Source of the DNA: Terfezia claveryi
Taxonomy: Eukaryota > Ascomycota > Pezizomycetes > Pezizales > Pezizaceae
DNA length: 64,000 nt
Direction: 5' to 3'
Assembly: GCA_015179025.1 (NCBI GenBank)
Contig: WHUX01000220.1
Location: 1 to 64,000, forward strand
Shown: positions 2,522 to 45,006 of the stretch, one piece after another
Numbering within the stretch: the first letter of the stretch is position 1
Layout of the letters: each line of letters starts with the position of its first letter
The notes under the pieces: model-generated
Seen by the model: only the letters and a program-made list of their open reading frames with translations
What the model was told of the DNA's origin: nothing
Database searches by the model: none
Program-made: the position numbers and the translations under genes

Positions 2522-3060
2522 TAGTGTGCACTATAAGGCGAGTACAACTCAAACCTGGTCACCAAGACCCGCCTCGGTAAGTGAGTTTTGTAGTTTCAAC
2601 AACTCGCCAAGTCGGCTTTCCTGTCCTACAACTTGACTTGCAATTAATTGGTAATCTACAGATTACTTGCCAAGCCTACCCTGTTTCCTTTTTTTTTTTT
2701 ATTGTTTTGTCCTGACTCTTCTATAATCTCATCACGTTTAACATCCTCATTCCGTTCTCCTATATCTTGGTTGTCTTTGTATGACTAATTCTTTCTACCT
2801 TTATAGGTTGCTTGTATAGTGCCAGATTGCTTGTCTAGTATTCCTTGCACTATCACAGATTGTATGCACTGTGCCCGATTACTTGTCACAGATTTCTTGC
2901 ACTATCACGGATTCCTTGCTTCTTTCACTATGCGAAATTGCCTGTCATAGATTGCTTGCACTGTCATGGATTGCTTGCACTATGATGGATTGCTGGCACT
3001 GTCACGGATTGCTTGCACTATCATGGATTGCTTACACTGTCACAGATTGCTCCCATCCAT
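2522..3060. repeat. Left terminal region of giant hAT: TIR and subterminal repeats
   Basis: The terminal TAGTGTGCACTA is followed by an ACTCGCC/CGAGT-rich stretch. From about 2815 to 3050 comes an array of short repeats of the form ATTGCTTGCACTATCA. The right end (about 44695-44785) has the same kind of repeat in opposite orientation. Such subterminal arrays are known transposase-binding regions in hAT elements. The binding role here is inferred. Confidence 0.75.
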
Positions 3061-3615
3061 TGACAAACAATACTAGCAATCTGTACTACATAGCCAAACA
3101 AAATCCTTACCCAAATATCAGTTAAGAAATATATTAATATACCTTAAATAAATCACAAGACCCATCACCATAACTATAACAAAAATCCTTCCCATATCCT
3201 ACAAAACCTGAAAAATCCTTCCTAACCTCACTTGAGTTTACCAATAATCCCCCGTAAATCAATTCATACAACTATGCAACATAGAAAGAAAAAAAAAAAA
3301 CTCTTGAAAGCAAAACCAAATGCCCTAAACGTTCCCTAAAAACAGTACTTAGCTGGTAGGATGGTGTTCAACTAGTAGGAAGTCGGGTACTGGAACCTAA
3401 TTCGACAAAGATTCCAATATTTACCTTAGCTGTCAGGCGTTCGAGTATCTGTGTTTCTTAGTAATTGACATCTAAACTAGAATTGTATAACATCAGGGCA
3501 GTCCCTCTTCGACTGTTGATGTAAACCTCCCTACATTATAGTCGTTCTTGTAACTATATATTTCATCCTCAGTAATAGTGAACTTTCTGCTAGGTGATGT
3601 ACAGTATGCTAATAC
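3061..3615. other. Non-coding stretch
   Basis: AT-rich sequence without a convincing gene, apart from one A12 run near 3290. No long open frame or paired repeat was recognised. Confidence 0.5.
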
Positions 3616-3895
3616 AAGGGAATGATTATTAGGTACCTGCGCCTCCTCCTCCTGCTGCCCCTCTGCCTGCTACTGCCCCCACCATTGCTACTGCTTCTCC
3701 TCCTCCTCCTGCTTCTAGTCCTCCTCCTCCTGCCTCTAGTCCTGCTCCGGCTGCTGCTGCTGCTACTACCACTACTCCTAGTCCTCCCCCTGCCCCTGGT
3801 CCTGCTCCTGCTGCTGCTGTTGCTGCTGCTCCTCCTCCTCCTGCCCCTGCTACTGCTGCTGGCCCTCCTCCTCTGGCTAGTCTTGGTACTGCACG
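3616..3895. repeat. Low-complexity CTG/CTC tract
   Basis: A run of CTCCTC, CTGCTG and related triplets. It is open in several frames: poly-Leu on plus and an Ala/Gly-rich reading on minus that ends a frame beginning at 3988. The openness follows from the triplet composition, so I do not call a protein. The minus reading starts about 100 bp downstream of the H3-like frame and could be untranslated or a further exon. Confidence 0.7.
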
Positions 3896-4094
3896 GTATC
3901 CTCTTTTTGCTTTTTTAGCTATTTGTCGGCTCACATGAGGTACATGTAGAAATGCCCCTGGTACATTACCCCTGGCCAATATATTCACCTAAATTTTATA
4001 CCATAGTCTAACATCCCGCTGTAAGATTGTTTGTCTATTGTTTGTTTCACTGCCTTGTATTGCAATCAGGGCACCGCTTTTTCTGTATTCGTAA

Positions 4095-4583
4095 TTAGTC
4101 ATATTTGTCTGTGATAGCATCTATAACAGCATCTGTGATATATTTTGACTTACTAGTGAAATACTCATGCATATTTGCTTCCGCCACCTCCTGTATGGCA
4201 TCTGTTGCCCTCACTTGGATATGCTCCATATTATTCTGATCTATGAACTGCAGGTATTTGTTGTTATTATCCCTATTAACGTTTAGTACAATCTCCTTGC
4301 AATGCCTATAGAATGCAATCTTCGGAAATATTAGGTCAATGCTTCTCTGTTGATTCCTAATCTGACATATAAGGCTGACTAATAATATAGTTAGATTAGT
4401 CCTTTTTACTTCATAGAATAGAATACTTCATGGAATGGAATGCTAACGTCCTTGTGACTGCTTTCTTATGGTTTCTGGTGCTACCACTTTTTGGGAGGGC
4501 ACGACTGATTTTATATTCTTAGGGACTTGTGACCTTGCTGGTTGCCCAGGGTTTTTCTTCGGAACCTACTTTGTTCTTGCCAT
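4095..4583 (-). pseudogene. Divergent histone H3-like gene, degenerate, one intron
   Basis: The reading starts MARTK at 4583, the canonical H3 start, followed by TAG where H3 has Gln5 (CAG). Exon 1 (4583-4448) gives 45 codons, the same length as the H3 tail up to Gly44. Lysines align with K4 and K9, and glycine with G12. A 69-nt intron (4447-4379) has donor GTTAGC, a CTAATCTAAC branch region and an ATTAG acceptor. Splicing joins phase 1 correctly. Exon 2 (4378-4095) then reads like the H3 fold: QIRNQQRSIDLI resembles the REIRRYQKSTELL helix, KIAFYRHCKEIV resembles LPFQRLVREIA, and RATDAIQEVAEA resembles SSAVMALQEASEA. The loop between helices 1 and 2 is about a dozen residues longer than in H3. 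The frame ends at TAA (4095). The final helix is not clearly preserved. A CENP-A-like origin is possible, but the MARTK tail favours H3. Confidence 0.72.
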
Positions 4584-4589
4584 TATTAT

Positions 4590-5390
4590 ATATTAGCTGG
4601 TTAAAGGAGGTAATAAACTTGGTAACTCAGGGGCGATAGTGATGATCTTATACGAGACGAAGCAATACAGAGCATTGTGGGGATCCAGACCTAACTATCA
4701 AACAATGAATCCAAGTTTGCCTGCATGTTCCCTTAAGTTAGCTTAGATACTTTAGTGTTATACATCAATAAAGGAAACCCGACAAAGGAAACACGACAAA
4801 CGAAACCCTATAAAGGATATCGACAACTAGCTGTTAGGCTATTAGTCATATACACAATTAAGCTAAACAAGTATTATCATGGCAGATTAACTCACCTTTT
4901 GCCAAATTCTCCCTAGGGACTGACTCATTTTGGCCCCCTTAATGGGGCCGCATATGGGTTACTTTTGCCTGCAGGTGGGCTAGAATTACCGGAGGAGACC
5001 AGACAAGCTGGAAGGCGATATATACTAGAGTATATATATATACCTATCTGTCTCATATGCAACCTTAGAATACCGAGGGACTAGTGCAAGCCGACTCGTG
5101 AGTTGTACCCTAGTCTAAGCCTGCACCATTAGCCTAATATACCGGGCTTGTGCCAACCAGACTATATCTTAAGTACTCTATTGTCCACCTAGTAACTAGT
5201 CTATACTAACCTATTGCTGTATCCAAAAGAATAATAAATCAACAATCCTGACCCACAATGATATATCAAACAACTAATACTAAACATTCCATTAGAGAAC
5301 AAGGAAATAGAGAAATAATTACTGGACAACATAGGGATCTGTAACAAAATATAAATTCCGTGACAAAGTATAAGGTCTGTGACATCCCAT
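4590..5390. other. Intergenic region between two minus-strand genes
   Basis: No coding region recognised. A GACTAGTGCAAGCCGACTCG motif near 5090 resembles a hAT-type terminus (TAGTGCA followed by CGACTCG). No inverted partner with a duplication was found, so it is only noted. Short direct repeats (GACAAAGGAAAC-like) occur near 4775-4815. Confidence 0.4.
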
Positions 5391-5396
5391 ACATGG

Positions 5397-6691
5397 TCGT
5401 TATTCATCATGTTCTTCTCCCTCGATATCATCCTCTCCTTCACCCTTTTCATCCTCTTCATCTTCTTCATCCTCTTTATCTTCTTCACCCTCTTCATCTT
5501 CTTTATCCTCTTCACCCTCTTCATTTTCTTCATCACCTTCTTCCACTTTATTCTCCTCAATCCCCTCCACATCTTCGTAATTATCATCATCTGTGTTGCT
5601 CGGGATAAGTTCTGAGGGTGAATCGCCACCAAGATGAGGCAATCCTTTTTGACGTAGCCTCGATACTGGCCATAATGGAGTTTCGATTACGCTATCCTTT
5701 ACCAAATATACCTTGGCATCATCGTTGGAATCAGTAAGCTCGGCCTCAGCGTCAAATGATGAAAGGTCGTCCTCTAGAACCTGGCCATTGCTTTCATCTT
5801 CGAAGTCCTATGCTATGGTGAATAATATATCACAATTCTGAAGGGAGAGATACATACGGGTTCAATATCCTCAACTGTATTACTTAAACAATCTTCCGCA
5901 CCCCCTTCAGCTATTTCTATTTCCTGTATGATCCAATCAGCTATGGCAATTGCATCGTCTTATGCATGTGGCTGTTCAATTGGGCCTTTGAACCGTGCGT
6001 ATGCTTGGCGTGAAATAGGCTCAATACTAACAACAACACTAAACTTATTTACTGGCTTTGTTCCTGTTTCTTCCAAATCACTTTCTGGAATTGTAAATGC
6101 CAGTATATTATCACCTTCGCCTAGCTCAAGATAAAACCTCTTCTGTGCTTGGGAGAGCCCATACCAGTAATATAAAATATACGCCTTCTTCCTAACTAAC
6201 ATTGCCTCCCAGGTCTTTTGGACAAGTCATTCGAACTTGCCGCATTGCACATCACTGAGCTGATTCCTCTTCATCCCAATTGGTGCACCGGTAACAGTGG
6301 CATGCTCACTCTCCGCTACGCCATCTTTAAGAGCCCTATTAACTTTTTGGCACTTCCACTCCTTGGCTCGTTCGAACGCTAGAAGTGGATCTAGCAATCT
6401 TTTCTGAGTTTCCCAGATTTTTCTGGTATGTGGATTGGTTGATGTTCCCCAAACTTTATGACCCCCACTAAACTCTTTGTCTAGGTCGAATTCTTTTGAG
6501 CTCCAAAGAAATTCTGCATACTTCTCATATGGGTTTACTGGTATAACTGGGGCTGGGGCAGGCATAGCTAGAATAGATATGACTGGCATAGTTGTTACAG
6601 AAGTCTTTCTCCATTTGTATTTATCTGTTGTTCGATTCCGAATGTTGTGTTCCTCTTCATCGCATCTTCTTTTTTGTATGGGGCCTACCAT
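5397..6691 (-). pseudogene. Unrecognised protein with long acidic C-terminal tail, two in-frame stops, one intron
   Basis: One continuous minus-strand frame starts with MVGPIQKRRCDEEE at 6691. Exon 1 (6691-5858, 278 codons) carries two stops, TGA at 6227-6229 and TAA at 5960-5962, and the protein-like sequence continues in the same frame after both. A 50-nt intron (5857-5808) has GTATGT and CATAG boundaries and joins in phase 0. Exon 2 (5807-5397) ends in about 60 residues dominated by Glu and Asp, with repeats such as GEEDKEDEE, then TAA. The total is about 414 codons. I do not recognise a family. Acidic tails are common in histone chaperones and nucleolar proteins, and the H3-like gene is the next gene downstream on the same strand. 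A chaperone role is only a guess. Confidence 0.6.
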
Positions 6692-7430
6692 TATGATCCC
6701 TTGCTTTGATAGTCTGTTTTTTTGGCTATATGCTTTCTTGTCAATCTATAGACGTCCTAGACACCAACCGTGACACTGTCCATGACACCATCCATGACAC
6801 TATTATGACACAGCCCTTGGAGCACTTTGGATCATACATGACCTTGGAGCACATACCTGCAGAAATGAGGCCTTGTAACCGGCGCTGACAATAGCTAATA
6901 GTGGGTATTATACTGGACGCAGCATGAGACTTTTACAATTCAGTGAATTACACTATCTTTCCAATTTAGGCAACCCATAAGGATACAACCTTTGAATATT
7001 CTGAGGCCAAGTTATGTGGGTTAAAATGTCTATGATATCTCCGTCAATAATCTTTCCACCTACGACTTACATAGCTGGTCTCCGGTTATAGAACTTAAAG
7101 CACTTACCCCTGAATTATTATGAGCACAATTTATATGGGTTGAACTGTCAATGTTTGTTGTAACAAATGAATGAGATTCTCAGATGCCTCACAAGTTATG
7201 GCGAGTTGAAGTGAACAAAGAGGCAAATTGAACAAAGGGGAAATTGAATAAAGGCATGCATTCATTCTTTGTATGCAAGCAAACATCGAGACTATAAGCA
7301 AACTTAGATGTCATAAACTGAAAAAGGAAAATATGACTTGTATTACTACTAAGCGAGCATATGTTACTAAGCGCATAGATGCATTCCAAATAAACCAGAA
7401 TTATTATTTCTTAAAATTCATAGTTATAGG
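6692..7430. other. No gene recognised
   Basis: Contains a short direct repeat of TCCATGACAC units near 6778-6812. Otherwise no coding, RNA or inverted-repeat feature stands out. Confidence 0.4.
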
Positions 7431-7439
7431 GCCAATATG

Positions 7440-8010
7440 GGCAATATAGATATTTGAACAGCCAGGCCGATAAGATGCCCTTCCATTGAGCTGACTATCT
7501 CAAGCTGTCTACCTAGACCTGCCCTCCTTTTTTCCCTCCGCTTCTAATCGCGAGCCCTTTGTTGCTTACGGAGGAGCTGCTGTTAAGTATCCATAGTCCT
7601 GAGGGGAGCTACCTCATCCCCATCCTTATCAGATAAATGACTTAGTACTCGCAATGGGGAAGGGGCTTCACTGGGCAGAAACCAGAAGGGGCAGGGTCTA
7701 AAATCATAGGACGTTCTTAGAAGGCAGAAGCAGATGTAATAAATTGGGATAATTCATATTGCTGCTTGGGACAGGCTTCTCATTCTCCTTATTCTCTGGC
7801 TACTCGCTAGGAAAATCGTCTTCAACTCCTCACTATCTATAGGTGCCTCACTTGGGGTAGCAGGGACCTCTACTGGCCTGCGAGACTGGTAGTGCCACAG
7901 ATATCGGTTCCTAAGATCACTAGAGTAAAATTCGGATTAGCTGTAGGCTTCTAACAAGGTCCTGTTATTTTCAAGTGATGTGCCCACATACCGCTATAGC
8001 GCCTATTTCT
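7440..8010 (-). pseudogene. Degenerate coding-like stretch, family unknown
   Basis: On the minus strand, protein-like segments appear in switching frames. A segment with RNRYLWHYQSRRPVEVPATP and SEELKTIFLASSQRIRRM is followed by a charged, coiled-coil-like segment with LLRKQQRARD and KRREKRRAGLGRQLE. Stops and at least one frameshift separate them. No start is assigned and no family is recognised. It has the same orientation as the two minus-strand genes to its left. Confidence 0.3.
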
Positions 8011-8569
8011 GTCCACTGGAGCCTTAACTATTTTCTACTACTATAAGCCACAGTGCTTTTGGCACGTGCAGTTGCCTATGGCTTCCAAAAGTTCAGTCCC
8101 CAGAAGTAATGAAAATACGATCAGAATCTATCCAGTGCAACCGGTCAATTGGGCAAGCCTATTAAGCCTAGAATCACAAATACCAAGATTACGTAGGATA
8201 ACTGCAAAAAATGATATTGGACAAGAAACTAAGTATGAGAAGTTATACCTTGGGGCCATGCTTTGCTCTGAGATTCTTGTGCTCGAGTTGTATGCATAGT
8301 GTTGTTCGGTGTGTGAGATCTTGAGGATAAGGATTATGGTAGTTGAAGAAGTAGTGTAGTGATTGCAGTTACTGTAGTTGAAGGAGCAGCGAGGACATGC
8401 GGATTTTATCTACCATTGCTATGGCCACTATCTGGCTATGGTCTACCCTCCAGCCCCTTGATGTCTCTATTGCTAAAGTAAAGGAGTCTCAGAAACGAGA
8501 TAAACTATACAATTAGAGCGAAGAAAAAAAGCCAATACCCAATTAGTATGTAGTTAGTCATTAATGTGG

Positions 8570-9040
8570 AGGTATCTTCTACACGATTGGGAGTTTGATA
8601 TGGTTGGAATCACTTGACAGTTAGTTGGTTGTCTTGTCACGGATTGTTTGTCTTGTCACAGACTAGTTGACTTATCATTTGTTGTCTTTCAGATTGACTG
8701 TCTTATCATAGATTGGATTATCTTTTATGTACTCGTTGACTTGTTAGTCGGTTGGCACTTGACTTGTTACAGACTGATCGTCTTGTCATAGACTTATCAC
8801 TGAGTAATTGTGTTGGTACGTACTGGTTGACTAGTCTGTTGCACTACCCGTCATTGTTGTCAGACTAGTTGACTTGTTAGTCTCGATCAGACCCTCGTAG
8901 AGGTTGACTTGTGAGGAGGGTGTTGTGCCAACCAGACTATTGACTTGTCACGGACTAGTTGACTTGTCACAGAATAGTTAACTTGTTAGACTAGTTGACT
9001 TGTTACGGACTAGTTGAATTGTCACGGACTGGTCACTGCT
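8570..9040. repeat. Array of GACTAGTTGACTTGTCAC-type repeats
   Basis: About a dozen imperfect copies of a unit combining GACTAGTTGACTTGTCAC with GGATTGTTTGTC. The same words (TTGTCACGGATTG and relatives) make up the subterminal arrays of the giant hAT unit at 2815-3050 and 44695-44785. It may mark another hAT terminus or an internal extension of the left subterminal region. Confidence 0.6.
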
Positions 9041-9357
9041 GAGCAGTTTGGTACTTGCGGTTATACCAAGCAGGCATAGGTATTTCGTAGCATTACCAAA
9101 TATGGTCACATACCGTAGAGCTCCAGTTATTCGTAGCGTAATTTCAAATTGGGTGGCATACTTAAGTAGTGTTTCTGTTGAGGCTTAACTAAGCAACTTC
9201 ACCCAACAGGTATAGATTTCATAAGCTAAGCAGCATTAGCCACCAGATCTTAGTACACTACTGGGTATGTAGGCCAGATTTAAATAAGGCTACTGAGTAA
9301 CTAGTATGTACTGATCTAAAGTAGAATAAAGAGGTATGTAAATAGGATACTACATCC

Positions 9358-9515
9358 ACTAGCGAACAACGATCCTTGTCAGTTTAATGACATAGGCCGA
9401 GATTATGCAGTAAAGGTGATGTTGAGTGCAAAACAGTGGTGGTAACATGCTACTGACTTGCTAATAATGTCTGCAGTGAAAGTCAGAGAACTGACAAGGA
9501 TCGTTATTCGCCAGT
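9358..9515. mobile_element. Short foldback MITE with 27-bp terminal inverted repeats
   Basis: The left end reads ACTAGCGAACAACGATCC and continues to CTTGTCAGTT. The right end, read inward on the other strand, is ACTGGCGAATAACGATCC with the same continuation, giving two mismatches in about 27 bp. The interior is non-coding. No target duplication was clear, so the superfamily is unassigned. Confidence 0.7.
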
Positions 9516-9681
9516 AATGCAGTATTACAATATCCAGATAATTCCTAAATAGGCAATAGTCATCGAATATGAGCAATGAGTTTTTTCTTTTTTAAAAATG
9601 AAAAATAAAAAATCAAATAAATGAATAAAACTATATATATATAGAGTATGTAGGTATTGCCATTTATATTAGCCTAACAAT

Positions 9682-10595
9682 ATGGCGGAGAACTATTACA
9701 ACCCGGATGATGAAGAGTCATTTGAACACTTCAGAGTGTTGTGGGAGCAGAACAATGGACTATAATATTTCCTGAGCTGGGTAGTAGTGAATTGGTAAAA
9801 TTTGAGGCTACGCTGTTGGTTATAGAACGATTCGACTCAAGCAGGATTGAGTCTCGAGTAGCAGCCCAAGTACTCCTTGAGCTGATCTGGATAGGTTGGT
9901 ACTACTTATACCTTGTAGCCCATCTACTTGGGATCCATTTTATCTAGACAACTACACTTTTTACGATTTATTGTAGGTTACTCTTTTCAACTTTTACCTA
10001 ACTCTCTGCTGACCAACTACCAATAGCATGGGTGTGTTATCCTGGGTTTATGCGAAAATTGTCAATTTCTATCTGTAAGTTGATACTGGGCCGAAGAACA
10101 TCTAAGCTGTAACTTACCTTATTCTAGGTGCTTTCCAAGACCCATCGAATACTAGACACCTTAGTGTCTTGATGTCATGTATTTGTGCCTCAACCATGGC
10201 ACCTATCACCCAGAATAATAGTTCAATGTTATGGGGAGCGCATCTTGCTTCTACCTTCCTGAAGGCATGTTCTTGATGTTGCATCTAATCACAATGTCAG
10301 GCTAACTCCATGTAGACCTCCAGAGATTATCAACTTCTACGCAATGCCCGACTGGACTTGGAGATGCTCTTTACTACAATAGAACACTCCCACATCTAGT
10401 GAGAGTGACACGGACATGGAAGTGGATATGATTGCGGACAATGTTGAAAAGTGTGTAGTGGATTCGGAGTATAGTGGTTCCTCAGGTGCATTCTGCTCAA
10501 CCAATAGTGAAAGCTTTGGCTCTCCAAGCGAGCTTTGGAGGTCGTCTTCTAGTTTGGAAAGCTTACAAGCTTCAGAAGTGTCAGAAGCGTCAGAA
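9682..10595 (+). pseudogene. Possible gene fragment, family unknown
   Basis: A TATA-like CTATATATATATAG at 9631-9644 precedes an ATG at 9682 that opens MAENYYNPDDEESFEHF and stops at 9763. A later protein-like stretch on the same strand (about 10340-10590) reads FYAMPDWTWRC, then a TAG, then an acidic, serine-rich segment (SSESDTDMEVDMIADN). The two could be exons of one broken gene ending where palindromic element B1 begins. The link is not proven. Confidence 0.25.
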
Positions 10596-10674
10596 GCATC
10601 AGCAAGAAATCGTGTTTGCGTCCTGTGCATCCGGACGCATAGGACGCAAAGGACGCACAGGACGAAAACTCAAG

Positions 10675-10965
10675 ATCAGGACGCCAGTGCTTGGTGCTCG
10701 TGCATCAGGACGCCAGTGCTTGGTGCTCGTGCATCAGGACGCACTAGCAGTTTGCGCCCGCGTTTGGGACGCAACGCACTGTGCTCCAGCTCCTGGGACG
10801 CAACACTCGCCCGTGGCAGATGTTCCCGCGCCCAGGATGCAACACAAGTGTGCTTCTGCTCCTAAAACGCAATACAAGTGTGCTCCCATGCCTGGGACGC
10901 AACACATTTGTTTGGCAGATGCTCCCTCTCCTAGGACGCAACATGTGATGGACTGCTCGTCCCAA
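10675..10965. repeat. Minisatellite of GGGACGCAACAC-type units
   Basis: Imperfect units of about 30-50 bp built around GTGCTC and GGGACGCAAC. They lie in the arm of B1 and are open in several frames by composition. They are not taken as coding. Confidence 0.6.
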
Positions 10966-11199
10966 ACGCTATAGGTTCTACAGCTGGCATTGCTAACGGA
11001 TAGCCCACAATCGCTCTCTTCTACAATGCACCCGCTTGTATGTACGACGCTCTAACACCAGCCAGGTGCGTAGCCACTATTGCAGCCATTGCATATGCAT
11101 GCAGCGGAAATATCCATTGTATTCGCTAATAATTATATACACAGAAGTATTAAGTAATAGATATATATAGAGAGTATGCACTCGCTGCTTCAATCACTC

Positions 11200-11400
11200 T
11201 AACACTCGCTCTAATACTTGCTCCAATACTCGCTCTAATACTCGCTCTAATACTCGCCCTAATACTCGCCCTAATACTCACTCCAATACTCGCTCTAATA
11301 CTCGCCCTAATACTCGCTCCAATACTCGCTCTAGTACTCGCCCTAATACTCGCTCTGTTACTCGCTCCAATACTCACTCTAATGCTCGCCGTAATGTGCT
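11200..11400. repeat. 12-bp minisatellite (CTAATACTCGCY)
   Basis: About 16 tandem copies of a 12-bp unit, CTAATACTCGCT or CTAATACTCGCC. The same array occurs in both arms of B2 (39300-39410 and, inverted, 40635-40830). Confidence 0.85.
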
Positions 11401-11606
11401 GGGATATAGAGCGAAGGGAAAATGCGCGGGAAGGGAGGTATATATACAGGAAAACCATAATTACCAAGGCCGACTGCTAAGGCCGACAATATAGACTTTC
11501 CGAAGAGAATGAGATAAGGGATAACCAGAGAAGTGGCATGACAGTGATCAGCCCCCTGTCGCACATGGGTGCCGTACTATTCAATGCCTGGGCTGGTAAT
11601 AGTCAT

Positions 11607-12240
11607 CATCACAAAGGAATATAGTTTGCCTTTATGGCATCTGATGCCTTCGGTGCCACTAATGACAAACTGCCAGTTACCAGCGCACTCCGCTGTTTCT
11701 CTGTCTCCCCGATGCTGGCTCTTCACAGGCTGCCTGCTGATGCTGGCACCACATGGTCCTCCTCCTGACCCTGACATTCCTGCACAATCATCAGGAATGA
11801 GCTCTGACGCTATGTCTTGGGAGGTACCGCCCTGGCTCCATGTTTTCTGAGGTGGCGCCATGATGCGTGTCTTTAATATCGACGCCCTGGCATAACTACC
11901 TGATAGGCAAACCACTGTGTGCACTCAAAGCATGGAGGTGATAGTAACTATACATTGTAAGAACTATGTACGTTTGAATTTCTATAAACATAGCTGAGCT
12001 ATATATGCACTTCCAACAAACCATTCCCTTATGCATCCCACTTGAACTCATCCTGCACATATGCCTCCAAAAATCCTAGCGGTTCCCTGATCTGAGCTGT
12101 CTGCAAAGTCGTTATCGCCATGCTTTGATCTAATAATATCTATATAGCTATTAACAACAGAATGCTGATATCGCGAGACTGCATATGCCTAGAGCTACCC
12201 AATTGCTGGCTGATATAGTCATCTACTGCCATGAGTAATG
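11607..12240 (-). pseudogene. Inverted gene copy in left arm of foldback A
   Basis: Read outward on the minus strand, a frame opens MAVDDYISQQLGSSRHMQ near 12235 and continues through TLQTAQIREPLGFLEAY. A second segment (from about 11924 down) ends in NWQFVISGTEGIRCHKGKL. The two segments are in different frames, so an intron or frameshift separates them. The right arm encodes nearly the same protein. The 3' end is cut at the element border. No family is recognised. Confidence 0.5.
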
Positions 12241-12251
12241 CCTATTACTAG

Positions 12252-13620: not shown

Positions 13621-13949
13621 CTCCACATATAGATGGGGGATATCTCGAGAGTACACTGGGGGAGTTCTAACCTCAGCTTGACTTGCTGCCAACTGGCTGG
13701 TTGAGTTATCTGTGCAAAGAGGGGGCACCCTTGCTCTTGTGTTCAGTTCGTTCACGCATGCCTGGATATATGTCTCGGTTGACGCAGGCGACAAATATGT
13801 ATGATTGGTGGGAAGGTAGATTGGCGCATGCTGGTGTGACAGATCAGCATATACATGTTTCAGGCCACATATGCCCGCCAGCCATGAGATTACCGAAGTG
13901 GGTAATAGGTATGAAAGAGGAGCCCTTATGGCAGGCTTGTAAATATGGA

Positions 13950-31222: not shown

Positions 31223-31223
31223 T

Positions 31224-32732: not shown

Positions 32733-32737
32733 TTTAT

Positions 32738-34838: not shown

Positions 34839-34859
34839 GCCTCAAGAGACTTCGGCCGT

Positions 34860-34869
34860 AAGGAGGGGA
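34860..34869 (+). promoter_or_regulatory. G1 polypurine tract
   Basis: AAGGAGGGGA sits 3 bp before the right LTR, the expected place for the plus-strand primer. Confidence 0.8.
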
Positions 34870-34872
34870 TAT

Positions 34873-35343
34873 TGTCACGGCGTTAATTTACTTGCGAGGT
34901 ATTTGACATTCGAACAGGCTTGTTCGAGTGTCAGCGTGGTATTTGACACCCGAACAGGCTTGTTCGAGTGTCAGCGTGGTATTTGACACCCGAACAGGCT
35001 TGTTGGAGTATCAGCGTGGTATTTGACACCCGAACAGACTTGTTTGGAGTGTCTTAATACTAGAAGGGATTAGAGAGGTGGATCGCGGAGTATCACCTGT
35101 GATCGCAGGTGACGTTAAGTTAGTTGGGCGCTACTCCTTTGGCCATAGCAATCGTGTATATAGGAAGCCGTAATTGTCGTTTCTTGTTCTTGTTCCTTAC
35201 GCAACGTCTTGTATTATAACCTTGGTAATACAGACTCTGCCCTTTGTCTTGATACTTCAATCTACAGTTATAGTCTCATCTTCATGCGCTCCTTGGAGTC
35301 ACGTCTTTAGTTATAGCCACAGCCAATGACTTACGCCGTTACA
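34873..35343 (+). repeat. G1 3' LTR
   Basis: Starts TGTCACGGCG and ends CGCCGTTACA. It has the same four direct repeats as the left LTR. CCTAC follows. Confidence 0.95.
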
Positions 35344-35395
35344 CCTACCCAAACAAAATTTAATCACATAATGAAAACTTAACCACTGCACCACA
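35344..35395 (-). other. tRNA-like sequence, 5' half (A box), split by G1
   Basis: The minus strand shows TGGTGCAGTGGTTAAG, a good A box, at 35393-35378. With one CCTAC removed, the A box lies about 50 nt before the B box half at 20490-20480. Because an equivalent lies in the same place in Plavaka copy 2, it appears to be part of the transposon's intergenic region. Confidence 0.6.
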
Positions 35396-35875
35396 ACTCA
35401 TAATATGTAAAATTAATTATAATGCGTTACATATAGAATGCTGCTCCATTAGTCTTGATATTTATTGTATTCAAAGCAAAGTTGTTTATGTTATATATAT
35501 TCTCGTGTGCAGTGCATACTAAAGTATACATTTGTAGGCCAAGCATGTTCTAGGATGGCCTAGTGCCATCGGGTTTGAACATGACCTGGTACTTGCATTT
35601 CTTTACATTTTGAAGTTTGACTACAAATGGTCATATTCTCCAATGTAGCCATCGGAAATGTAGTATAAGAGATCCGATAGACCCCATCTTGTAGTCCTAT
35701 TATTCCTACGTACTTAGTATCCACTTCAGCTTAACGAGACTACTTCAGCTATCACAGCCACCTTTGCATTGACCGCAAATACCAAGAAGAACTTATTTCC
35801 CTATACGGTAATCTCTAACTCACACCCGACGCACGTAGGCTAATATGACACATACCCAGAGATAAGTCAGCAAGA
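35396..35875. promoter_or_regulatory. Divergent intergenic region of Plavaka copy 1
   Basis: It aligns, inverted, with 47700-48220 of copy 2 through shared blocks such as ATGGCACTAG, GCTTTGAAT and ACAGCCACCTTTGC. It should hold the promoters of gene X (plus) and the transposase (minus). Conservation between two diverged copies supports function but does not prove it. Confidence 0.55.
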
Positions 35876-37066
35876 ATGGTTACTCCGATAAACTTAATTC
35901 AGAATGCAAAGACTGACTTTGGGTAGGACACCTAAGATGCTGATTACACATCGTGGCGCAATGCTGTGAAGGACTATTGTGCGCAACAATCAATCTGAAG
36001 TTGGGCCTTAGGTAGCCACAATGAGAAGGATGCTCTGGTTATTGCAGCTCAAAACTTCACTGGGATGAGGAGTACTATGAGAAATCGACTAGCTGTGGGT
36101 TCCGAACACCACAAAAAGGTACTGGAAGCACTACTCCAGGATTGCCTCAAAAAGCGCTTCGAGACCGCAAAAAATTTGGCGATCAAGCGAGCTCGTAAGA
36201 GGGCACAGCCTGATGAGAACTCCGACGCAGAGGATAAAGTGTCTGACGGCAGCGAAGACCCAGGAACTGCCGTAGCTTTCTGGGTGGGTAACCCTGAGAT
36301 AGGAGGGCATAGGGATATCAACGGGTGGATTTGGGATGTGAGGAATAGAAGAAATATGGGGGTTATTGAGAATAAGACTCTAGATGGTATATGGAATATG
36401 GTGAAAGCTGATGTTCCTACGGATAGAAAAGTGCACCAAATTTTGGAAGCTCTTGAGGGCCCCATGGCTGCCGTCCTGACATTTCTACCAGACTATATGA
36501 GTCTGAATTCTGACGCACAAGTGAGGGCTTTCTTTCAAATAACGCAAGCAAAACCAGTACGTATATTCATTCTACTGCATTCCGTGCCCCCAAGGGCCAA
36601 CACCCTCCTCCCTGCTGGAGCCAAACCATACTTCGATCTGGACAGATTTAACCCACTGAATGAATATGATGATTTTGCTAAGGATTCCGATGCCAATATA
36701 CGCAATATCACTGGAGTCTGTCAGTGCTGCATACCAACAAGAGACCACATATTTGAACAATGAAAGCATGAACTACGTGCAAGAGTGGCCCGCCAGGAAG
36801 AAACCCTAAGGGAAGTAAAGAGGGAGCATAAGCGCCTCTTCCCCAACGCCGGCATTATCGACTCTGATGATAAGGATTACTGCTATATTTGGTGCCTCAA
36901 ACGGCCCAAATGTACTACTGGTCCGCAACTCATCAAGGCACGTCAAGTTGTAGGTGAAAGGCGTCGGGCTACCCAGTTAAACCGACATCTCGGAGTTCGA
37001 CGATTTGTGAGCAAAGTTCGTGGGCTGAATGCAGCCCAACATGCATGGGAGGCGTTAAATGGTTAG
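35876..37066 (+). pseudogene. Gene X, copy 1: second gene of the Plavaka element, function unknown
   Basis: A single frame starts MVTPINLIQNAKTDFG at 35876 and ends at 37066 (about 396 codons), interrupted by TAG, TAA and TGA near the start and TGA at 36761-36763. It includes a conserved TMRNRLAVGSEHHKKVLEAL block, a basic segment (KRARKRAQ) followed by an acidic one, DINGWIWDVRNRRN, LTFLPDYMSLNSD and FILLHSVPPRANT. The carboxyl part is basic and coiled-coil-like (RVARQEETLREVKREHKRL). The homologue at 46838-47699 is similar along the whole shared length and has the same divergent placement beside a Plavaka transposase. I recognise no domain. A helper of transposition or a DNA-binding partner is possible. 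Confidence 0.75.
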
Positions 37067-37515
37067 TACACCCCTACCCTCATCCCCAAATCTGCTACAC
37101 CTAACTCCTGGAATTGCGAGCTAACCTACAACATATAGCCTAGGTGACTTTGTACGTCGGGAGTTAGTCTGGTCAGTGGAATTTCTTTACTGTTAGTTCA
37201 TTTTTTTTTATAGTTAGTCGGGTTGATTATAGTTAGTTTTTTTTTATTAAGGGTAGTCGAGTTCTTTTGTAGTTAGTCAGGTTTTAGTATAGTTGAGTCG
37301 GGTGTTTCTCAAGATAAGAGAATAGATAAGCATTTCACCCATTGACCACTTCTCGTCCACCCTCACCCCTACATTTCCTTTACATCTAACATCCAAGATT
37401 TACAACTTCACACATCCAACATCCCTACGTACCCCTGTCCCCTCCCTACCTATCTCCTCCCTGTCCCTCCCTGTGCCCTTGTCTTCTATCCCTGTCCCTC
37501 TAGATTACTTGCATA
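37067..37515. other. Intergenic region between gene X and the DUF6532-like gene
   Basis: Contains imperfect direct repeats around TAGTTAGTCGGGTT (37200-37300) and a C-rich CCCTGTCCC tract before the next ATG, like a fungal pyrimidine-rich promoter. No gene seen. Confidence 0.5.
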
Positions 37516-37664
37516 ATGTCCCAATGCTCCCAAGGAGTCAACCGACAGCGAACAGTTACATCCTCTTTATTTCAGAAGGACACCAAAGGGGAGGATGATG
37601 AGGATACTGTATTACAGCCTCTCCATCTTGCTCTGTCTTCCAAAAGACTTGCTGAGTCAGATGG

Positions 37665-38137
37665 TGTAATGGCGTAAGTCATTGGCTGTGGCTATAACTA
37701 AAGACGTGACTCCAAGGAGCATACGAAGACAAGACTATAACTGTAGATTGAAGTATCAAGACAAAAGGCAGAGTCTATATTACCAAGGTTATAATACAAG
37801 ACGTTGCATAAGGAACAAGAACAAGAAATGACAATTACGGCTTCCTATATACATGATTGCCATGGCCAAAGGAGTGGCGCCCGACTAACTTGACGTCACC
37901 TGCGATCGCAGGTGATACTCCGCGATCCACCTCTCTAATCCCTTCTTGTATTAAGACACTCCGAACAAGTCTGTTCGGGTATCAAATACCGTGCTGACAC
38001 TCGAACAAGCCTGTTCAGGTATCAAATACCACGCTAACACTCGAACAAGCCTGTTCGGGTGTCAAATACTATGCTGACACTCGAACAAGCCTGTTCGAGT
38101 GTCAAATACCTTGCAAGTAAATTAACGCCGTGACAGA
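37665..38137 (-). repeat. G1-family solo LTR
   Basis: A 473-bp LTR, inverted relative to G1's, TGTAATGGCG...GCCGTGACA on the plus strand. Flanked by perfect GATGG duplications (37660-37664 and 38138-38142). It interrupts exon 1 of the DUF6532-like gene and arose by recombination between the LTRs of a full insertion. Confidence 0.95.
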
Positions 38138-38820
38138 TGGAGGATATCCAGCCAGAAAACTTCAAATCGATTATGGTGCACCAAAGACACCACGTTCTGC
38201 AGCACACCCATCGCGTTTTGCAGCATACCCATTGAGTTCTGCAGTACACCCATCAAGTTCTGCAGCACACCCATCAAGTTCTATAGCACACCCATCGAGT
38301 TCTGCAGCACACCCATCTAGTTCTGCAGTACACCCATCAAGTTCAAGGCAGCAAGTAAGTACTACCCCCACACCTAAATCAAGATGAGCCTGGCTAACCA
38401 TAATGTATATAGTCCTCGCCACCGCCGCTCTCTACTAGCAGAGGGCAGCCACGTACCCACTATACTGAGTCCAGTGCTGGTGATATGCCAAGTGATGCAT
38501 TCAGCTTGAACTCAGAAGGCCATACTTAGGAGGAAGAAGAGCTTGGACTCACGATCCAGAAGCCACCACGCGTTGGGCCCAGATCCTGCTCATTTTTCTC
38601 AGTTCCTGATGAATACAAGAAACTGGTCCATCAAGCTGCCTCCCATGTATGGCATTATACCCTTTTCGGAAATCCAATGCTCAATGCAAAGGAAATCCAA
38701 CAATTATTATCTGTAACTTGGGTCAAGGCACAGGAGGAAACTGGCGAGACACTACCACGCCTGAAAATTCCAAGTACTCATGTATGTAATACTCCCTATG
38801 CATGACATCGGATGGTACAT

Positions 38821-41265
38821 CAGGAAAAAAGATTTGGCGTCCGGACGCAGCACTAAGCGTCCAAATGCGATTTTGCGTCCTGTGTGTCCTGTGCATCCAG
38901 ATGCCTCGGGGTATTGCATTATGATCCGGACGCAACTAGGGCCTTGCACTGCGTCGCAATACAATCCCGACGCTATTGGGGCAACAATAGCCATCCAGAT
39001 GGTGGTTGACATAAGCTCAATGTCTGGATGTCAGAGTTCATTCCTATCGCATCAACAACTCAATTAAGGTTGTTAATGCTATAGGTTCTATGTCTGGCGT
39101 TGCTGAACCACGGCCCCAAATCGCTCTCTTCTACAATGCACACCCGCTCACTACTTGCATGTACGACAGCCAGGTACGTAGCCACTATTGCAGCCATTGA
39201 ATATGCACATAGTAGAAATATCCATAGTATTCGCTAATAATTATATAAACAGAAGTAATAGATATATATATTGAGCATGCAATCGCTGCTCTAATCATAC
39301 TAACACTCGCTCTAATACTCGCTCTAATACTCGCCCTAACACTCGTTCTAATACTCGCTCTAATACTCGCTCTATTACTCGCTCTATTACACGCTCTAAT
39401 GCTCGCCGTAATGTGCTGAGATATAGAGTGAAGGGAAAATGCGTGGGGAAGGGAGGTATATATACAGGAAAACCATAGTTGCCAAGGCCGACTGGTAAGG
39501 CCGACAATTTAGACTTTCCGAAGACAATGAGATAAGGGATAACAAGAGAAGTGGCAGGACAGTGATCAATGGCGCTCAGCCCCCTTTCGCTCGTGGGTGC
39601 CGTACTATTCAATGCCTGGCCTGGTAATAGTCATATTGGGAAATCGTAGTCATTGTATAGAGATATGTGTGGAGTTCACGCTTTGTGATATGTTTCATAG
39701 GAATTCATGTATTCTCGCACATATATATATATATATATATGTGCGAGAAACTCGTGCTTTTGGAGACTTATATATATATATGCCCGCGGATGTATGTAAT
39801 TCTCGCATATATATATATAAGTCTCCAAAAGCACAAGTTCCTCGCACACACATATATATATGCCCGCGAATGCATGCATTTCTCTATATATCTCCTAAAG
39901 CACGAGTTTCTGGCATAAATATATATATATGCCCGCGGATGCATGGAATTCTCGCATATATATATATAAGTCTCCAAAAGTACAAGTTTCTCGCACACAT
40001 ATATATATATGCCCGTGAATGTATGCATTTCTCTATATGTCTCCAAAAGCATGAGTTTCTGGCATATATATATATATATGCCCGCGGATGCATGGAATTC
40101 TCGTATATATATATATAAGTCTCCAAAAGCACGAGTTTCTCGTACACATATATATATATGCCCGCGAATGTATGCATTTCTCTATATGTCTCCAAAAGCA
40201 CGAGTTTCTGGCATATATATATATCTATGCCTCCGGATGCATGGAATTCTCGCATATATATATATAAGGTTCCAAAAGCACGAGTTTCTCACATATATAT
40301 ATATATATATATATGCCCGCGAATGCATGAATTCCTACGAAACATATCACAAAGCGTGAACTCCGCACATATCTCTATACAATGACTACGATTTCCCAAT
40401 ATGACTATTACTAGGCCAGGCAATGAATAGTACGGCACCCGCGGGCGAAAGGGGGCTGAGTGCCATTGATAACTGTCCTGCCACTTCTCTTGTTATCCCT
40501 TATCTCATTGTCTTCGGAAAGTCTAAATTGTCGGCCTTACCAGTCGGCCTTAGCAACTATGGTTTTCCTGTATATATACCTCCCTTCCCCATGCATTTTC
40601 CCTTCACTCTATATTCCAGCACATTACGGCGAGCATTAGAGTGAGTATTGGAGTGAGTATTAGGGCGAGTATTAGAGCGAGTATTAGAGCAAGTATTGGA
40701 GCGAGTATTAGGGCGAGTATTAAAACAAGTATTGGAGCGAGTATTAGAGCAAGTATTGGAGCGAGTATTAGAGCGAGTATTAGAGCGAGTGTTAGTGCGA
40801 GTATTAGAGCGAGTGTTAGTGCGATTGGAGTAGCGATTTCATGCTCTATATATATATCTATTACTTCTGTGTATATAATTATTAGAGAATACAAAGGATA
40901 TTTCTGCTATGTGCATATTCAATGGCTGCAATAGTGGCTACATACCTGGCTGTCGTACATGCAAGTGGTGAGCGGGTGTGCATTGAAGAACAGAGCGATT
41001 GTGGGCTATCCATTAGCAACGCTAGCGGTAGAACCTATAGCGTTGGGGACGAGCAGCCCATTCCATGTTGCGTCCAAGAGGAGAGAGCATCTGCAAAGCG
41101 CATGTATTGTGTCCCAGACGCGCGAGCACCACGCGAGCACCGTCCGAGTGCGTCCGGACGCTCGTGCGCCGAGCGTTTGGCATCTTGATCTTGAGTTTGT
41201 CTCCCATGCGTCCTGTGCGTCCCAGGCGTCCAGACGCACAGGACACAAATAATATTTTTGGTGAT
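38821..41265. mobile_element. Element B2: 2.4-kb palindromic element
   Basis: The arms are inverted copies around about 40020: GCGTCC-rich ends, the block with CTATAGGTTCTA and TCGCTCTCTTCTACAATG, the 12-bp minisatellite, the AGACTTTCCGAAGA block, and a block with AATCGTAGTCATTG. The centre (39710-40340) is a TA-rich array. Edges read ATCAGGAAAAA and TTTTTGGTGAT, so inverted ends of about 25 bp are imperfect and no clear duplication is visible. It sits inside an intron of the DUF6532-like gene. Confidence 0.8.
39710..40340. repeat. TA-rich hairpin array at centre of B2
   Basis: Alternating units: TATATGCCCGCGAATGCATG with AATTCTCGC, and TAAGTCTCCAAAAGCACGAG with TTTCTCGCAC, separated by TATATATATA runs. 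Individual units fold on themselves, e.g. the palindrome at about 39713-39752. Open frames here are artefacts of the period. Confidence 0.8.
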
Positions 41266-42201
41266 ATAATCTAAACCATTACAGCTCCATAGCATTCACC
41301 TCCGAACTCGTTCACATCTTGTTTATGAATGTAAATGCAGTATTGTGGGCGTCTTCGGATTGGACAAGCTGCCCCAACACGAGGTAGCTCAGCGGGTGAG
41401 CTATCTCCTATTCCAGGATCGGTTCATCTGTTGGGAAGACAGATGAGAGGTAAAGCTTCCTTCTTGCGTCAAAAGTCTGAAATGTCTAACCTGTCTAATA
41501 CTCATGTAGACCCACCAAAAGCATTTCCGAGGGAGCGAAATAATAGAAATCATTTTCTGCAAATATTTCTCCACTCTCAGGCAGCGGGGGAACTGCAATG
41601 AATCCTTCTTTGATGCTATCAATGAAGTCTTTATTTGCCTGGTGACCTCGGCCATGCGATATTGCCTCAAAGCATAGATGACCGAGGTGTATATTGAACC
41701 TCCGAGTGCAACAAAATTCAAATACGATTCAACCATCAGTAAGTATTTCTAATCTGACATAGGCAGCTTACTTTCTGATGCATATAGCAACGTACCAATA
41801 GTTTTTGGCCACCTGGAATGCCCACCCAAGGAGAGTACGTATGCTCCTTTTGGCGGCTATTAGGGCGATATACGTACACGTTTGGCCACTGCATAACGAA
41901 AAGGGTGTCTAGAATCAGACCAGCACCTAGAAGTTGGTGATACCTCGGCCTTTGAGGCCGAGCTTATGCAGTCTCTTCTCCAAGCGACCCAAGCAGCTCG
42001 CGTTACACGGCAATGGATTTCCGACGCCTTCCATTGGCAGAGCGACCAATATGAGGAGGAAGACCACTCCCATAAGTTTACATCTTTCTATACTCATAAC
42101 TACTCAGAAAAGGCTAATTCTAACTTACATGTGAAAACCGATGTGGAAGCCGCAGAACACGAGACTGATAATGAACTTGAAGAGGAGACGGATAATGACT
42201 G

Positions 42202-42769
42202 AATAACTCCGGAAATATCATACCCCAATACATATAACATGGCAGCATTCTGGCCTTTTTTTTTTTTTTGGCTACATGATTTTTCTTTTTCTTAATATAC
42301 ATGCATGTATAAATATACGTTTTTTGTAAATGGATTAGGTACCTCAAGTATGAAATAAAGGCAATATCAGAGTAGAACTAAGTACAATGGTAGATGCATA
42401 TACGGAATTCATCCACTTGGTACGCAGGCAGTCCCGACATAGCATATCGGGGACCCAGTGTTTGTGGCATAAGATCTGAGCAGACCAGAGTTGAAGCCGG
42501 GTAGGCATTTGTGCAAGCATTAGGGAAGAGTACCCAATAGACCTATAGAGTTGGTGACGAAGTTCATGAGTGCGATGGCGTCAAGATGGATCTGCAATTT
42601 GCTAGGGTATCATGAATGGTTCTACAATTCGGATTGACATCAGGGATCCAGGAGGACCGTGCATAGACATCAAAAGTGTGGGTTCACCGACAAGTTGCAT
42701 CAGGACAAGGCTTCCAAGCATAGTCACGTCCCAGGTACAGGGCCTCCTGCCAAGCAATGGTGTTATGTA
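42202..42769. other. No gene recognised
   Basis: A T15 run lies near 42258-42272. No frame continues the DUF6532-like gene or the hAT transposase convincingly. Confidence 0.4.
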
Positions 42770-42911
42770 TCAGGCGTGAGAGCACTGTCTGAATGCGTCC
42801 GGACGCTTATGCACCGAGCGTTTGGCATCCTGATCTTGAGTTTGTCTCCCAAGCGTCCTGTGCGTCCCAAGCGTCCGGACACACAGGACGCAAATAATAT
42901 TTTTGGTGATT
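42770..42911. mobile_element. Element B3: right-terminal fragment of a B element
   Basis: Matches the last 140 bp of B2: GAATGCGTCCGGACGCT, TTTGGCATC, TTGATCTTGAG-like words and the end AATAATATTTTTGGTGAT. Its other side is missing. Confidence 0.75.
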
Positions 42912-43198
42912 TACATATATAAGCCACGAATGCATGATTTCCATATATATATATGAGCCACGAATACACAAATTCCATGTATATATATAAGCAGCAAATG
43001 CACGAATTTCATGTATATATGGCTGGCGAAACTAGGATGCTAGCCTATTCCCCGTAACACAAGGGCTTAGTGAGTACTCGCGAGTAGCCAGCAAGTCGGC
43101 GTGAGCTGGCTTCTCATGGATTGCCATCCGTGAGAGTCAGCATCGAGTAGGAAAAATAGTTGGCAAACTCGCCTCGACTCGGGCCAATGCTCACACTA
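42912..43198. mobile_element. Element C2: right half of a hAT MITE
   Basis: TA-rich units (TAAGCCACGAATGCATGATT) are followed by the same right-terminal block as C1: ATGCTAGCCTATTCCC, GTCGGCGTGAGCTGGC, GGAAAAATAGTTGGCAAACT, ending CACACTA at 43198. The left half is absent. Its end joins the hAT transposase coding sequence. Confidence 0.8.
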
Positions 43199-44000
43199 TC
43201 GGAGCCTCAGGCTCAGAAGAGTCGCCTCGACGATTCAGAGCAATCCTACATTATGCATCAACTAGAAGAGCAGATAGTGACCAAATCAGAGAATATTCCG
43301 GAGGTCAAAAGATACTTAACCAGTGGTCTGGCTATACTAGATAGGCAGTGTCCCCTATCCTGGTAGAAGGTTCATGCTATTGAATACCCGACACTAGTAC
43401 GAATAGTAAGGGACATATTGAGTATTTCACTGACATCTGTGGCTATTGAGCATATATTCAGTAGTGCTCGAGATATTTTACCTTACCACTGGAACCGAAT
43501 GGCTCATCAGATGAACACAGTGCTAATGTTGATAAAATCTTGGGACTCGATACATGTAAAATATACAGAACTAGACCCTGAGAACACTCCTGCACATGTG
43601 GAAGAAGGATTAGCTGATTATGATGAAATTGATATGAGTTAGGAGAGACAAGCTCTTAGATATGATACAGAATTCCTCTGCCAGATGATGCCAGTCACTC
43701 TAGATAGACCATCAGGAAATGGTAATATAGTGTCAGAGTATAAGAGTAGCATGGAGGGAGAGGAAGAGTTTGAGGGAGATGATCTTGATGTAGAAGATAC
43801 AACTTCTCAGATTTCTAGCCCATTCAACAATTTCAGTGCGCAGTCAGTGGGAGGAATTGGCTTATTCCAAGGCAGCCTATTATGGAAGGAAAGAGGGACC
43901 CCAACACTCTGCACCCCATATCGCGGGACTAAGTTCCCTACCTCTCCATCCGTCAACCTGACGCCTTCAATGGCAACGAGGCTCCAGAAAAGGTTATAGC
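43199..44000 (+). pseudogene. hAT transposase, C-terminal part with dimerisation domain
   Basis: The frame runs SEPQAQKSRLDDSEQSYIM... to CPLSW, a TAG where hAT proteins have a second W, then KVHAIEYPTLVRIVRDILSI, SLTSVAIEHIFSSARDIL and NTVLMLIKSWDS. This is the hAT C-terminal dimerisation region (WW...YP.L...A...L.I..TS...E..FS...). A TAG at 43638 and a frame with an acidic tail follow to TAG at 43997-43999. The amino-terminal part, including any BED finger and catalytic residues, is missing upstream, where fragments B3 and C2 lie. Its position inside the right end of the giant unit makes it the candidate for that element's own transposase. Confidence 0.85.
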
Positions 44001-45006
44001 CCACTCAGCATAGGAATTACAAAGTGTGAGCCTGCATACTTGAGAGGGCACAAACCGAGGTAGGTATAGTCAATTATTCTTTATTCATTGTTTTTTTCCT
44101 TTGTCCTTTATACTTGAGTTTTGCTTTTTCCTATTAGCTTCCCTTATATGGGTGGGTTTCTTTTTATGCATGGGTTTCCTTAATGTATTGTTTTTTTGGT
44201 TGAATTGTGATTATTATAACAAGCGATACCAGGGTGGATTAGTTCTCATGATAAATCTGTGGTTGATAATCTTTTTTATTTTTTTTATTTTAGTCATTGA
44301 TTACTTATGGGATGTAAATTGAGTTTGGGGAGAATGGGAATAATTCATGATGTGGAACTGTGGGCACTTTTTAGGTGGACGTAGAAATCTTGAGAGTATT
44401 TATATATAAATTATTATTAAGATAGGGTAGATGGAGGGTTTAGAGATTAGAAGCAAACGTGAGAAATTTAGGTGCAAGGAAAAGGATAATATAGGGATGA
44501 GTAGGTAGGACGTTTAATATAGAATGTGTGGACATATGGCAGTACAAACAGAGCATAGTGAATGTGAGAGAGAAATTTGAAAGAATGGTTCTAGAAATTG
44601 TGACAGCAGGAGTAATCTGTGACTAAGAATGGTGACATTGGCAAAAACCATACAAAGGGACAGGAACGGGGTTTGGTGGGATCGGTACCATGCTGGAAGA
44701 CGAAACGAGCGATCTATGACAAGACTGGCAATCTATGACAAAAGTGGCAATCCATGACAAGACGGGCAATCTGTGACAAGCTGTATGCATGGATAAAGAG
44801 AGGAAAGAATGGAAAACCCTGGACTTGGCAAATGCATAAGTGTGAATGAGGTTAGTAAGGGATTTTAGTGAGTAATCTGTGGATCACCAATTAATCGGCA
44901 AAGTGGTCCGAGGTGGGTTGTAGTAGGCAAAGACCGAGGTGAGTCGATAGCTGAACGAGTTGTAAGTGCCAGAAACTCAGGCCGACTCACCCTGTAGTGC
45001 ACACTA
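44001..45006. repeat. Right terminal region of giant hAT: subterminal repeats and TIR
   Basis: Repeats GATCTATGACAAGACTGGCA, GGCAATCCATGACAAGAC and GGGCAATCTGTGACAAGC at 44705-44785 are inverted relative to those of the left end. The sequence ends CCGACTCACCCTGTAGTGCACACTA-like at 45006. The AT-rich 44001-44690 part has no gene. Confidence 0.75.

What the first reader, a model, noticed from the sequence alone, without database searches (positions are those of the whole stretch)
2522..45006. A 42.5-kb unit with hAT ends and a perfect 8-bp duplication
Seen directly: inverted TAGTGTGCACTA ends, CAAGATGA on both outer sides, and a gypsy frame restored across the two flanks (EGNHL then VVTCEIK). 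Inverted subterminal repeats of one type lie at both ends, and a hAT dimerisation domain lies inside the right end. Known: hAT elements make 8-bp duplications and are usually a few kb. Even without recognised later insertions about 12.7 kb remains, with several non-transposase genes. This may be a giant cargo-bearing hAT, a class not generally described for fungi.
Basis: partly seen in the sequence, partly recalled or inferred. Interest (0 to 1): 0.92.

Follow-up and report, generated by a model that had tools for sequence, protein, structure and literature searches.

The report
Large fungal hAT transposon with histone gene
The 42.5-kb unit is one old, dead copy of a roughly 12.6-kb jumping gene, probably of a desert-truffle fungus, swollen by other mobile elements that landed inside it; the unusual part is that this jumping-gene family carries an altered histone H3 gene and a second conserved gene.

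Summary
In detail: inverted ends (2522, 45006), a perfect 8-bp duplication, and gypsy flanks that adjoin in 11 of 11 fetched empty-site relatives. It is one hAT insertion. The 'giant' reading is not supported. Ten further copies in the same genome (probably Terfezia claveryi) show a mobile unit of about 12.6 kb; of nine with both ends, eight have a perfect 8-bp duplication and one 7/8. The window copy keeps element bases 1-8088 and 10774-12596; the 32.6 kb between, as far as identified, is other mobile DNA, and most of the transposase gene is missing. The one apparent second composite (contig C201) is a chimera near a contig end. The family encodes an 880-aa hAT transposase (uninterrupted in copy C21), a divergent H3-like histone, and an acidic-tailed protein with relatives in Terfezia boudieri and Tirmania nivea. 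Of 38 diverged H3-like places, 27 have the second gene upstream on the same strand, and 10 of these also the transposase in the same layout. H3-bearing hATs are already published in Dothideomycetes; size, class and retention across diverged places are what is new.

The parts
2514..2521 (.). Left 8-bp target-site duplication CAAGATGA
2522..2543 (+). Left terminal inverted repeat (TAGTGTGCACTATAAGGCGAGT)
2522..10602 (+). hAT element, left part = bases 1-8088 of copy C773 (91.9% identical)
3962..4583 (-). Remnant of the H3-like gene (exon matches 4446-4583, 4143-4379, 3962-4096; one stop each in the first and third)
   Evidence: reading frames; PF00125 on exon 2 only below its cut-off (0.0038)
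5858..6691 (-). Remnant of gene 2 (acidic-tailed protein of unknown fold; two in-frame stops here)
10603..43199 (.). Foreign nest in place of hAT bases 8089-10773; partly identified as other mobile elements
18732..19292 (-). Plavaka transposase fragment inside the nest
   Evidence: PF18759 1.3e-38
20506..35344 (+). Ty3/gypsy element, LTRs 20506-20979 and 34870-35344 (95.4% identical), interrupted by the next one
23777..32735 (-). Inner Ty3/gypsy element, LTRs 23777-24460 and 32053-32735 (98.0% identical)
43200..45006 (+). hAT element, right part = bases 10774-12596 of copy C773 (91.0% identical)
43367..43639 (+). C-terminal hAT dimerisation domain, the part of the transposase gene that is left here
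   Evidence: PF05699 9.1e-12
44985..45006 (-). Right terminal inverted repeat
45007..45014 (.). Right 8-bp target-site duplication CAAGATGA

Best explanation
The unit is one copy of a roughly 12.6-kb hAT DNA transposon family. A hAT transposase moved the element into a gypsy element with an 8-bp staggered cut, which gave the CAAGATGA duplication (insertion shown by anatomy, sister copies and empty sites). The copy then took many C-to-T changes of the RIP type, lost 2.7 kb including most of the transposase gene, and was filled with a 32.6-kb nest of other sequence, so that its ends now lie 42.5 kb apart (shown by comparison; the order of events is inferred). The family encodes a transposase, a divergent H3-like histone and an acidic-tailed protein; the last two probably serve the element itself, for instance in its chromatin, rather than being random passengers (inference).
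For: Ten other copies (L021-L040): nine have both ends; 8 of 9 have a perfect 8-bp duplication and 1 of 9 has 7 of 8. Five without large inserts measure 12.57-12.84 kb (C54 and C23 hold insertions of 249 and 165 bp), and all ten are collinear with C773, pairwise 90-99% identical. 11 of 11 fetched empty-site relatives are uninterrupted. Copy C21 reads as an uninterrupted 880-aa four-exon hAT transposase (PF05699 3.2e-20); its 44 protein hits are led by fungal hAT proteins, mostly Penicillium. The window's left and right parts are similarly diverged from the young copies (0.936 and 0.920 identical to C773) and similarly C>T-biased (88% and 89%), as expected of one old copy. The three-gene layout recurs at diverged places.
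Against: No second locus shows the whole 42.5-kb composite; its right inner junction matched nowhere else among 40 scored of 521 candidates. The 2.7-kb gap and the order inside the satellite-rich nest rest on one assembly. None of the ten fetched copies has all three genes free of stops and frame breaks. The function of the H3-like and acidic genes is inferred only. 11 of the 38 diverged H3-like places lack gene 2 in the set position.
Confidence: 0.9

Rival explanations
1. A giant cargo-bearing hAT: the 42.5-kb composite itself transposes as one unit, moved in trans by intact relatives.
For: Ends and duplication frame the whole composite. Contig C201 carries a copy at another site that shares the inner junction at 10602/10603 and 4 kb of the insert. 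Other copies are also long, e.g. C67 with about 33 kb between paired ends (not fetched).
Against: Identity between window and C201 in 250-bp steps is 0.89-0.98 up to about 10,010 and 0.99-1.00 after it (last partial step 0.96), with the change inside the hAT and before the junction; the shared piece runs to the end of the fetched stretch, 207 bases short of the contig end: a misjoin or ectopic recombination, not a moved composite. No right end carries the C201 left-flank 8-mer (exact pattern). The insert is absent from the ten fetched copies.
Confidence: 0.05
2. Two ends of different short hAT copies brought together by rearrangement or assembly.
For: At least 40 places of each end exist in the genome; the interior is repeat-rich.
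Against: Perfect 8-bp duplication, contiguous flanks in 11 of 11 fetched relatives, left and right parts collinear with one 12.6-kb unit and similarly aged.
Confidence: 0.04
3. The H3-like and acidic genes are neutral passengers (transduplicated host sequence under drift), as the authors suggested for Pyrenophora.
For: Many copies carry stops; published H3-hAT copies in Mycosphaerellaceae are RIP-dead (PMC6710886).
Against: Places at 38-59% identity in the H3-like protein still keep it next to gene 2 in the same order and strand (27 of 38; 0 of 38 on the 3' side; 2 of 38 with one on the opposite strand), several with open frames. Gene 2 has 28 database homologues, in Terfezia boudieri, T. claveryi, Tirmania nivea and jgi, ena and lgn sources.
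Confidence: 0.35

Closest known systems
hAT element with H3L in Pyrenophora tritici-repentis (PMC3538342; passages and section 20 part 1 read)
   Same: [quoted passage not shown] copies with open H3L frames exist
   Different: 5.6 kb there, about 12.6 kb here; near-identical copies there, strongly diverged H3-like places here; homology of the central ORF to gene 2 not tested; whether the H3-like protein here is closer to H3 or CenH3 not tested
H3-carrying hAT of Pseudocercospora fijiensis and relatives (PMC6710886; abstract and sections 6, 7, 9 and 10 part 1 read)
   Same: Large hAT (9.5-9.9 kb), 8-bp duplication, H3-like sequence, RIP-type decay
   Different: There the extra H3 copies are RIP-inactivated and the dimerisation domain could not be identified; here some copies keep open H3-like and gene 2 frames and the dimerisation domain is present
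ToxhAT of wheat pathogens (PMC6737239; passages read)
   Same: hAT-like transposase and several other genes between inverted ends, 14.3 kb
   Different: No target-site duplications were found for ToxhAT; different genes; a composite of at least two transposons
TET+ hAT7 of Puccinia (PMC12730594; abstract, section 12 and figure legends read)
   Same: Fungal hAT carrying a chromatin-related gene
   Different: 7-bp duplications and a TET/JBP dioxygenase instead of H3

Membership tests
hAT superfamily | 8-bp target-site duplication | tested here: met
   window 8/8; of nine other complete copies 8 perfect and 1 with 7/8
hAT superfamily | Short terminal inverted repeats | tested here: met
   12 of 12 identical in the window
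hAT superfamily | Transposase with C-terminal hAT dimerisation domain and homology to hAT transposases | tested here: met
   PF05699 3.2e-20 in copy C21; relatives with PF27041/PF27039/PF05699; DUF659 only below its cut-off
hAT superfamily | Catalytic activity (excision and reinsertion) | not testable with these tools
   recent movement implied by five copies 98-99% identical at different sites
   C201 is a chimera; right inner junction found only in the window, 40 of 521 candidates scored
H3L-bearing hAT (Dothideomycete type) | Transposase plus H3-like gene between the inverted ends | tested here: met
   PF00125 1.5e-11 for the joined exons of C773; H3-like matches in all ten fetched copies
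H3L-bearing hAT (Dothideomycete type) | Central ORF homologous to that of Pyrenophora | not tested
   The Pyrenophora protein was not at hand; one search names no Pyrenophora protein among its 28 hits
Starship | DUF3435 tyrosine recombinase captain (recalled) | tested here: not met
   No such domain in the element ORFs scanned; a hAT transposase and 8-bp duplications instead

The most novel reading that the evidence does not exclude
An old hAT lineage of Pezizomycotina carries its own chromatin kit: a dedicated H3 variant (with the ARTKQ start kept in the main family) and an acidic, chaperone-like partner, inherited as a three-gene core with the transposase and used to package the element or shield it from silencing. 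The Pyrenophora and Mycosphaerellaceae elements would then be branches of the same lineage and not separate captures of a housekeeping gene.
Probability: 0.25. Interest if true: 0.78.

Novelty: new variant of a known kind. Interest (0 to 1): 0.52.

Why it matters
Published H3-bearing hATs were read as captures that decay or drift. A genome with many diverged H3-like places, most of them next to the same second gene, makes a question testable: does a transposon use its own histone? It also shows how a very long 'unit' with perfect ends can be an ordinary transposon inflated by nesting.

Tried and rejected
Giant composite moved as one unit: favoured at first when C201 shared the inner junction, rejected after the stepwise comparison; note 3 of the notebook holds the superseded reading, corrected. 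Search for a right end with the C201 left-flank 8-mer: no match. H3-like protein against 5.8 billion proteins: 10 candidates, none significant, so no relative outside this genome was shown for it. Gene 2: no Pfam or NCBIfam match; the AlphaFold model of its homologue P0008 has mean pLDDT 53.8, blocks of 79-93 only at about residues 121-190, and no PDB match at E <= 0.001. KDZ, P and CACTA were considered because of the 8-bp duplication and the CACTA letters in the end; the transposase settles hAT. A plus-strand ORF set upstream of the transposase (C773 7157-8207) and a minus-strand ORF (4878-5411) were seen but not validated. Selection (dN/dS) on the H3-like gene was not computed. Papers PMC13152902 and PMC7550596: passages only, nothing used.
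Full report
Check of the observation. The window holds TAGTGTGCACTA once (2522-2533) and its reverse complement once (44995-45006), each with CAAGATGA directly outside. The ends agree at 12/12, 19/22 and 22/30 positions. A search with the left flank alone gave 40 matches, of which 12 came as loci, the window itself and 11 others. In 11 of 11 the sequence that lies right of the unit in the window follows on, with an overlap of 8 bp. Ten of these sites were printed: five have CAAGATGA unchanged, five differ at one base. So one insertion made the two ends.

What the unit is. The left 579 bp give 53 matches (some are pieces of one place) and the right 707 bp give 40 in the 72.6-Mb genome; 40 of 102 and 40 of 82 first-look candidates were scored. 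Ends pair in the right orientation on 13 other contigs, from about 12.5 to 33 kb apart (my pairing). Nine of the ten hold both ends, C133 being cut by its contig end. Eight of nine have a perfect 8-bp duplication, and C21 has 7 of 8. Copies without large inserts measure 12,574 to 12,844 bp (C21, C773, C778, C23, C54; C23 and C54 hold insertions of 165 and 249 bp) and align end to end. The window matches bases 1-8088 (2522-10602) and 10774-12596 (43200-45006); bases 8089-10773 were not found in it.

The host. Gene 2 of the element is most like proteins of Terfezia boudieri (71-73% for the three best); others are from Terfezia claveryi. One of the latter, P0025, lies on a contig of 166,279 bases, the same length as contig C23 of this genome. 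I infer T. claveryi, a Pezizomycete. Against this, no T. claveryi hit reaches the near-identity expected of the main-family gene (best 53%); repeat masking before annotation would explain that, but it is a guess.

Age and decay. Five copies (C773, C21, C54, C419, C246) are 98-99% identical; the others and the window parts are 91-95% identical to these. Against the majority of the young copies, the five older copies and the two window parts show 85-94% C-to-T or G-to-A changes, mostly at CG (24-36% of sites) and CA (12-19%), against 2-5% at CC and CT. This is RIP-like. The window's left and right parts are alike in this, as expected of one old copy.

The interior. 10603-43199 is not hAT sequence. 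A sequence starting at about 10598 is a common repeat end in the genome (40 of 570 candidates scored), with inverted partners at 41150-41265 and 42795-42910 (77%). 42909-43199 is part of another repeat. Inside are a Plavaka fragment and two nested gypsy elements with LTR pairs 95.4% and 98.0% identical. So what could be identified is other mobile DNA. Not all 32.6 kb was identified; the ORF at 35999-36763 had no Pfam match.

Does the composite move? Contig C201 holds a copy at another site that shares the inner left junction. Its left part, however, is a young copy (94-100% identical to C773 in 250-bp steps up to 10,010), while the window's left part is old. From about 10,010 onward, still inside the hAT, the two become 99-100% identical, to the end of the fetched stretch at C201:459,018, 207 bases short of the contig end. 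This pattern means a misjoin near the contig end or an ectopic recombination, and not transposition of the composite. No right end with the C201 left-flank 8-mer was found.

The genes. In copy C21 a four-exon reading gives an uninterrupted 880-aa protein with PF05699 at 3.2e-20 and DUF659 below its cut-off. The best of 44 database hits are fungal hAT proteins at about 30-34% identity, mostly Penicillium. On the other strand lies an H3-like gene. Its exons from C773, joined by eye, match PF00125 (1.5e-11) and solved H3 chains over residues 1-150, starting MARTKQ, with an extension where loop 1 lies. Five copies (C773, C62, C712, C21, C246) have matches to all three exons, each listed without stops; C793 has too, with a shorter match to exon 2. 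Many others and the window have stops, and the list was cut. Upstream of it on the same strand is gene 2. It has 28 homologues, a conserved core, an acidic tail, no Pfam match and no known fold. It is open over the searched 279 aa in C773, C54 and C419 and carries stops in the window. None of the ten fetched copies has all three genes free of breaks.

Is the set conserved? From the printed matches I took 38 diverged H3-like places (38-59% identity), 61 diverged gene 2 places and 54 diverged transposase exon places. 27 of 38 H3-like places have gene 2 on the same strand on the 5' side within 15 kb, 23 of them at 1.3-2.2 kb and four at 3.5-12.9 kb. None has it on the 3' side, and 2 have one on the opposite strand. 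11 of 38 have none in the set position. 10 of the 27 also have a transposase match on the opposite strand beyond gene 2 within 25 kb. The transposase search scored 62 of 428 candidates, so more may exist. Whether these places are full hATs with 8-bp duplications was not tested, since their DNA could not be fetched.

Compared with what is known. The Pyrenophora 5.6-kb hAT has transposase, central ORF and H3L (PMC3538342). The Mycosphaerellaceae H3-hAT is 9.5-9.9 kb with 8-bp duplications and RIP-inactivated H3 copies; the authors give about 5 kb as typical and cite lengths up to 7,144 bp (PMC6710886). ToxhAT is 14.3 kb without duplications (PMC6737239). TET-bearing hAT7 exists in Puccinia (PMC12730594). 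My literature searches listed no paper on such an element in Pezizomycetes. They cover only the open-licence library, and several lists were cut (10 of 1,066, 15 of 48, 12 of 64, 15 of 68).

Mechanism. Shown: hAT-type insertion, decay and nesting. Inferred: mobilisation by intact copies, and a role of the H3-like and acidic proteins in the chromatin of the element. The retained ARTKQ start and the tight gene pairing speak for a role; the missing selection test leaves it open.

Noticed in passing
window 24327-32735 and 55264-63667: Two copies of the same gypsy element in opposite orientation, matching pieces 97-98% identical: a possible site for ectopic inversion.
   Followed up: no
G000 contig C201, about 454,390-459,018: About 4.6 kb near the contig end is 99-100% identical to window 10,010-14,620 while the rest of that hAT copy is a different, younger one: probable misassembly or recombination.
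   Followed up: partly
window 11179-17117, 39075-41044, 50724-51463: Large arrays of 111/123-bp, 39-bp, 12-bp and 34-bp repeats, partly inverted.
   Followed up: no
window 10598-10713, 41150-41265, 42795-42910: Inverted terminal-like repeats (77%) of an unidentified element whose end is common in the genome.
   Followed up: partly
protein P0003 (Terfezia boudieri): Its N-terminus resembles a plus-strand ORF at bases 1054-1446 of hAT copy C773 (LTQGND.WVPAPP), suggesting the same element, with a fused gene model, in T. boudieri.
   Followed up: no
proteins P0004-P0009, P0013, P0014, P0017, P0019-P0021 (source jgi): Gene 2 homologues at 51-71% identity on short contigs of the jgi source, probably metagenomes: related elements in other fungi.
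   Followed up: no
diverged H3-like places such as C253:28994-29335 and C355:11285-11623: These 42-43% identical places match residues 4/5 to 122 in one piece, so they seem to lack the intron that the main family has after residue 45.
   Followed up: no
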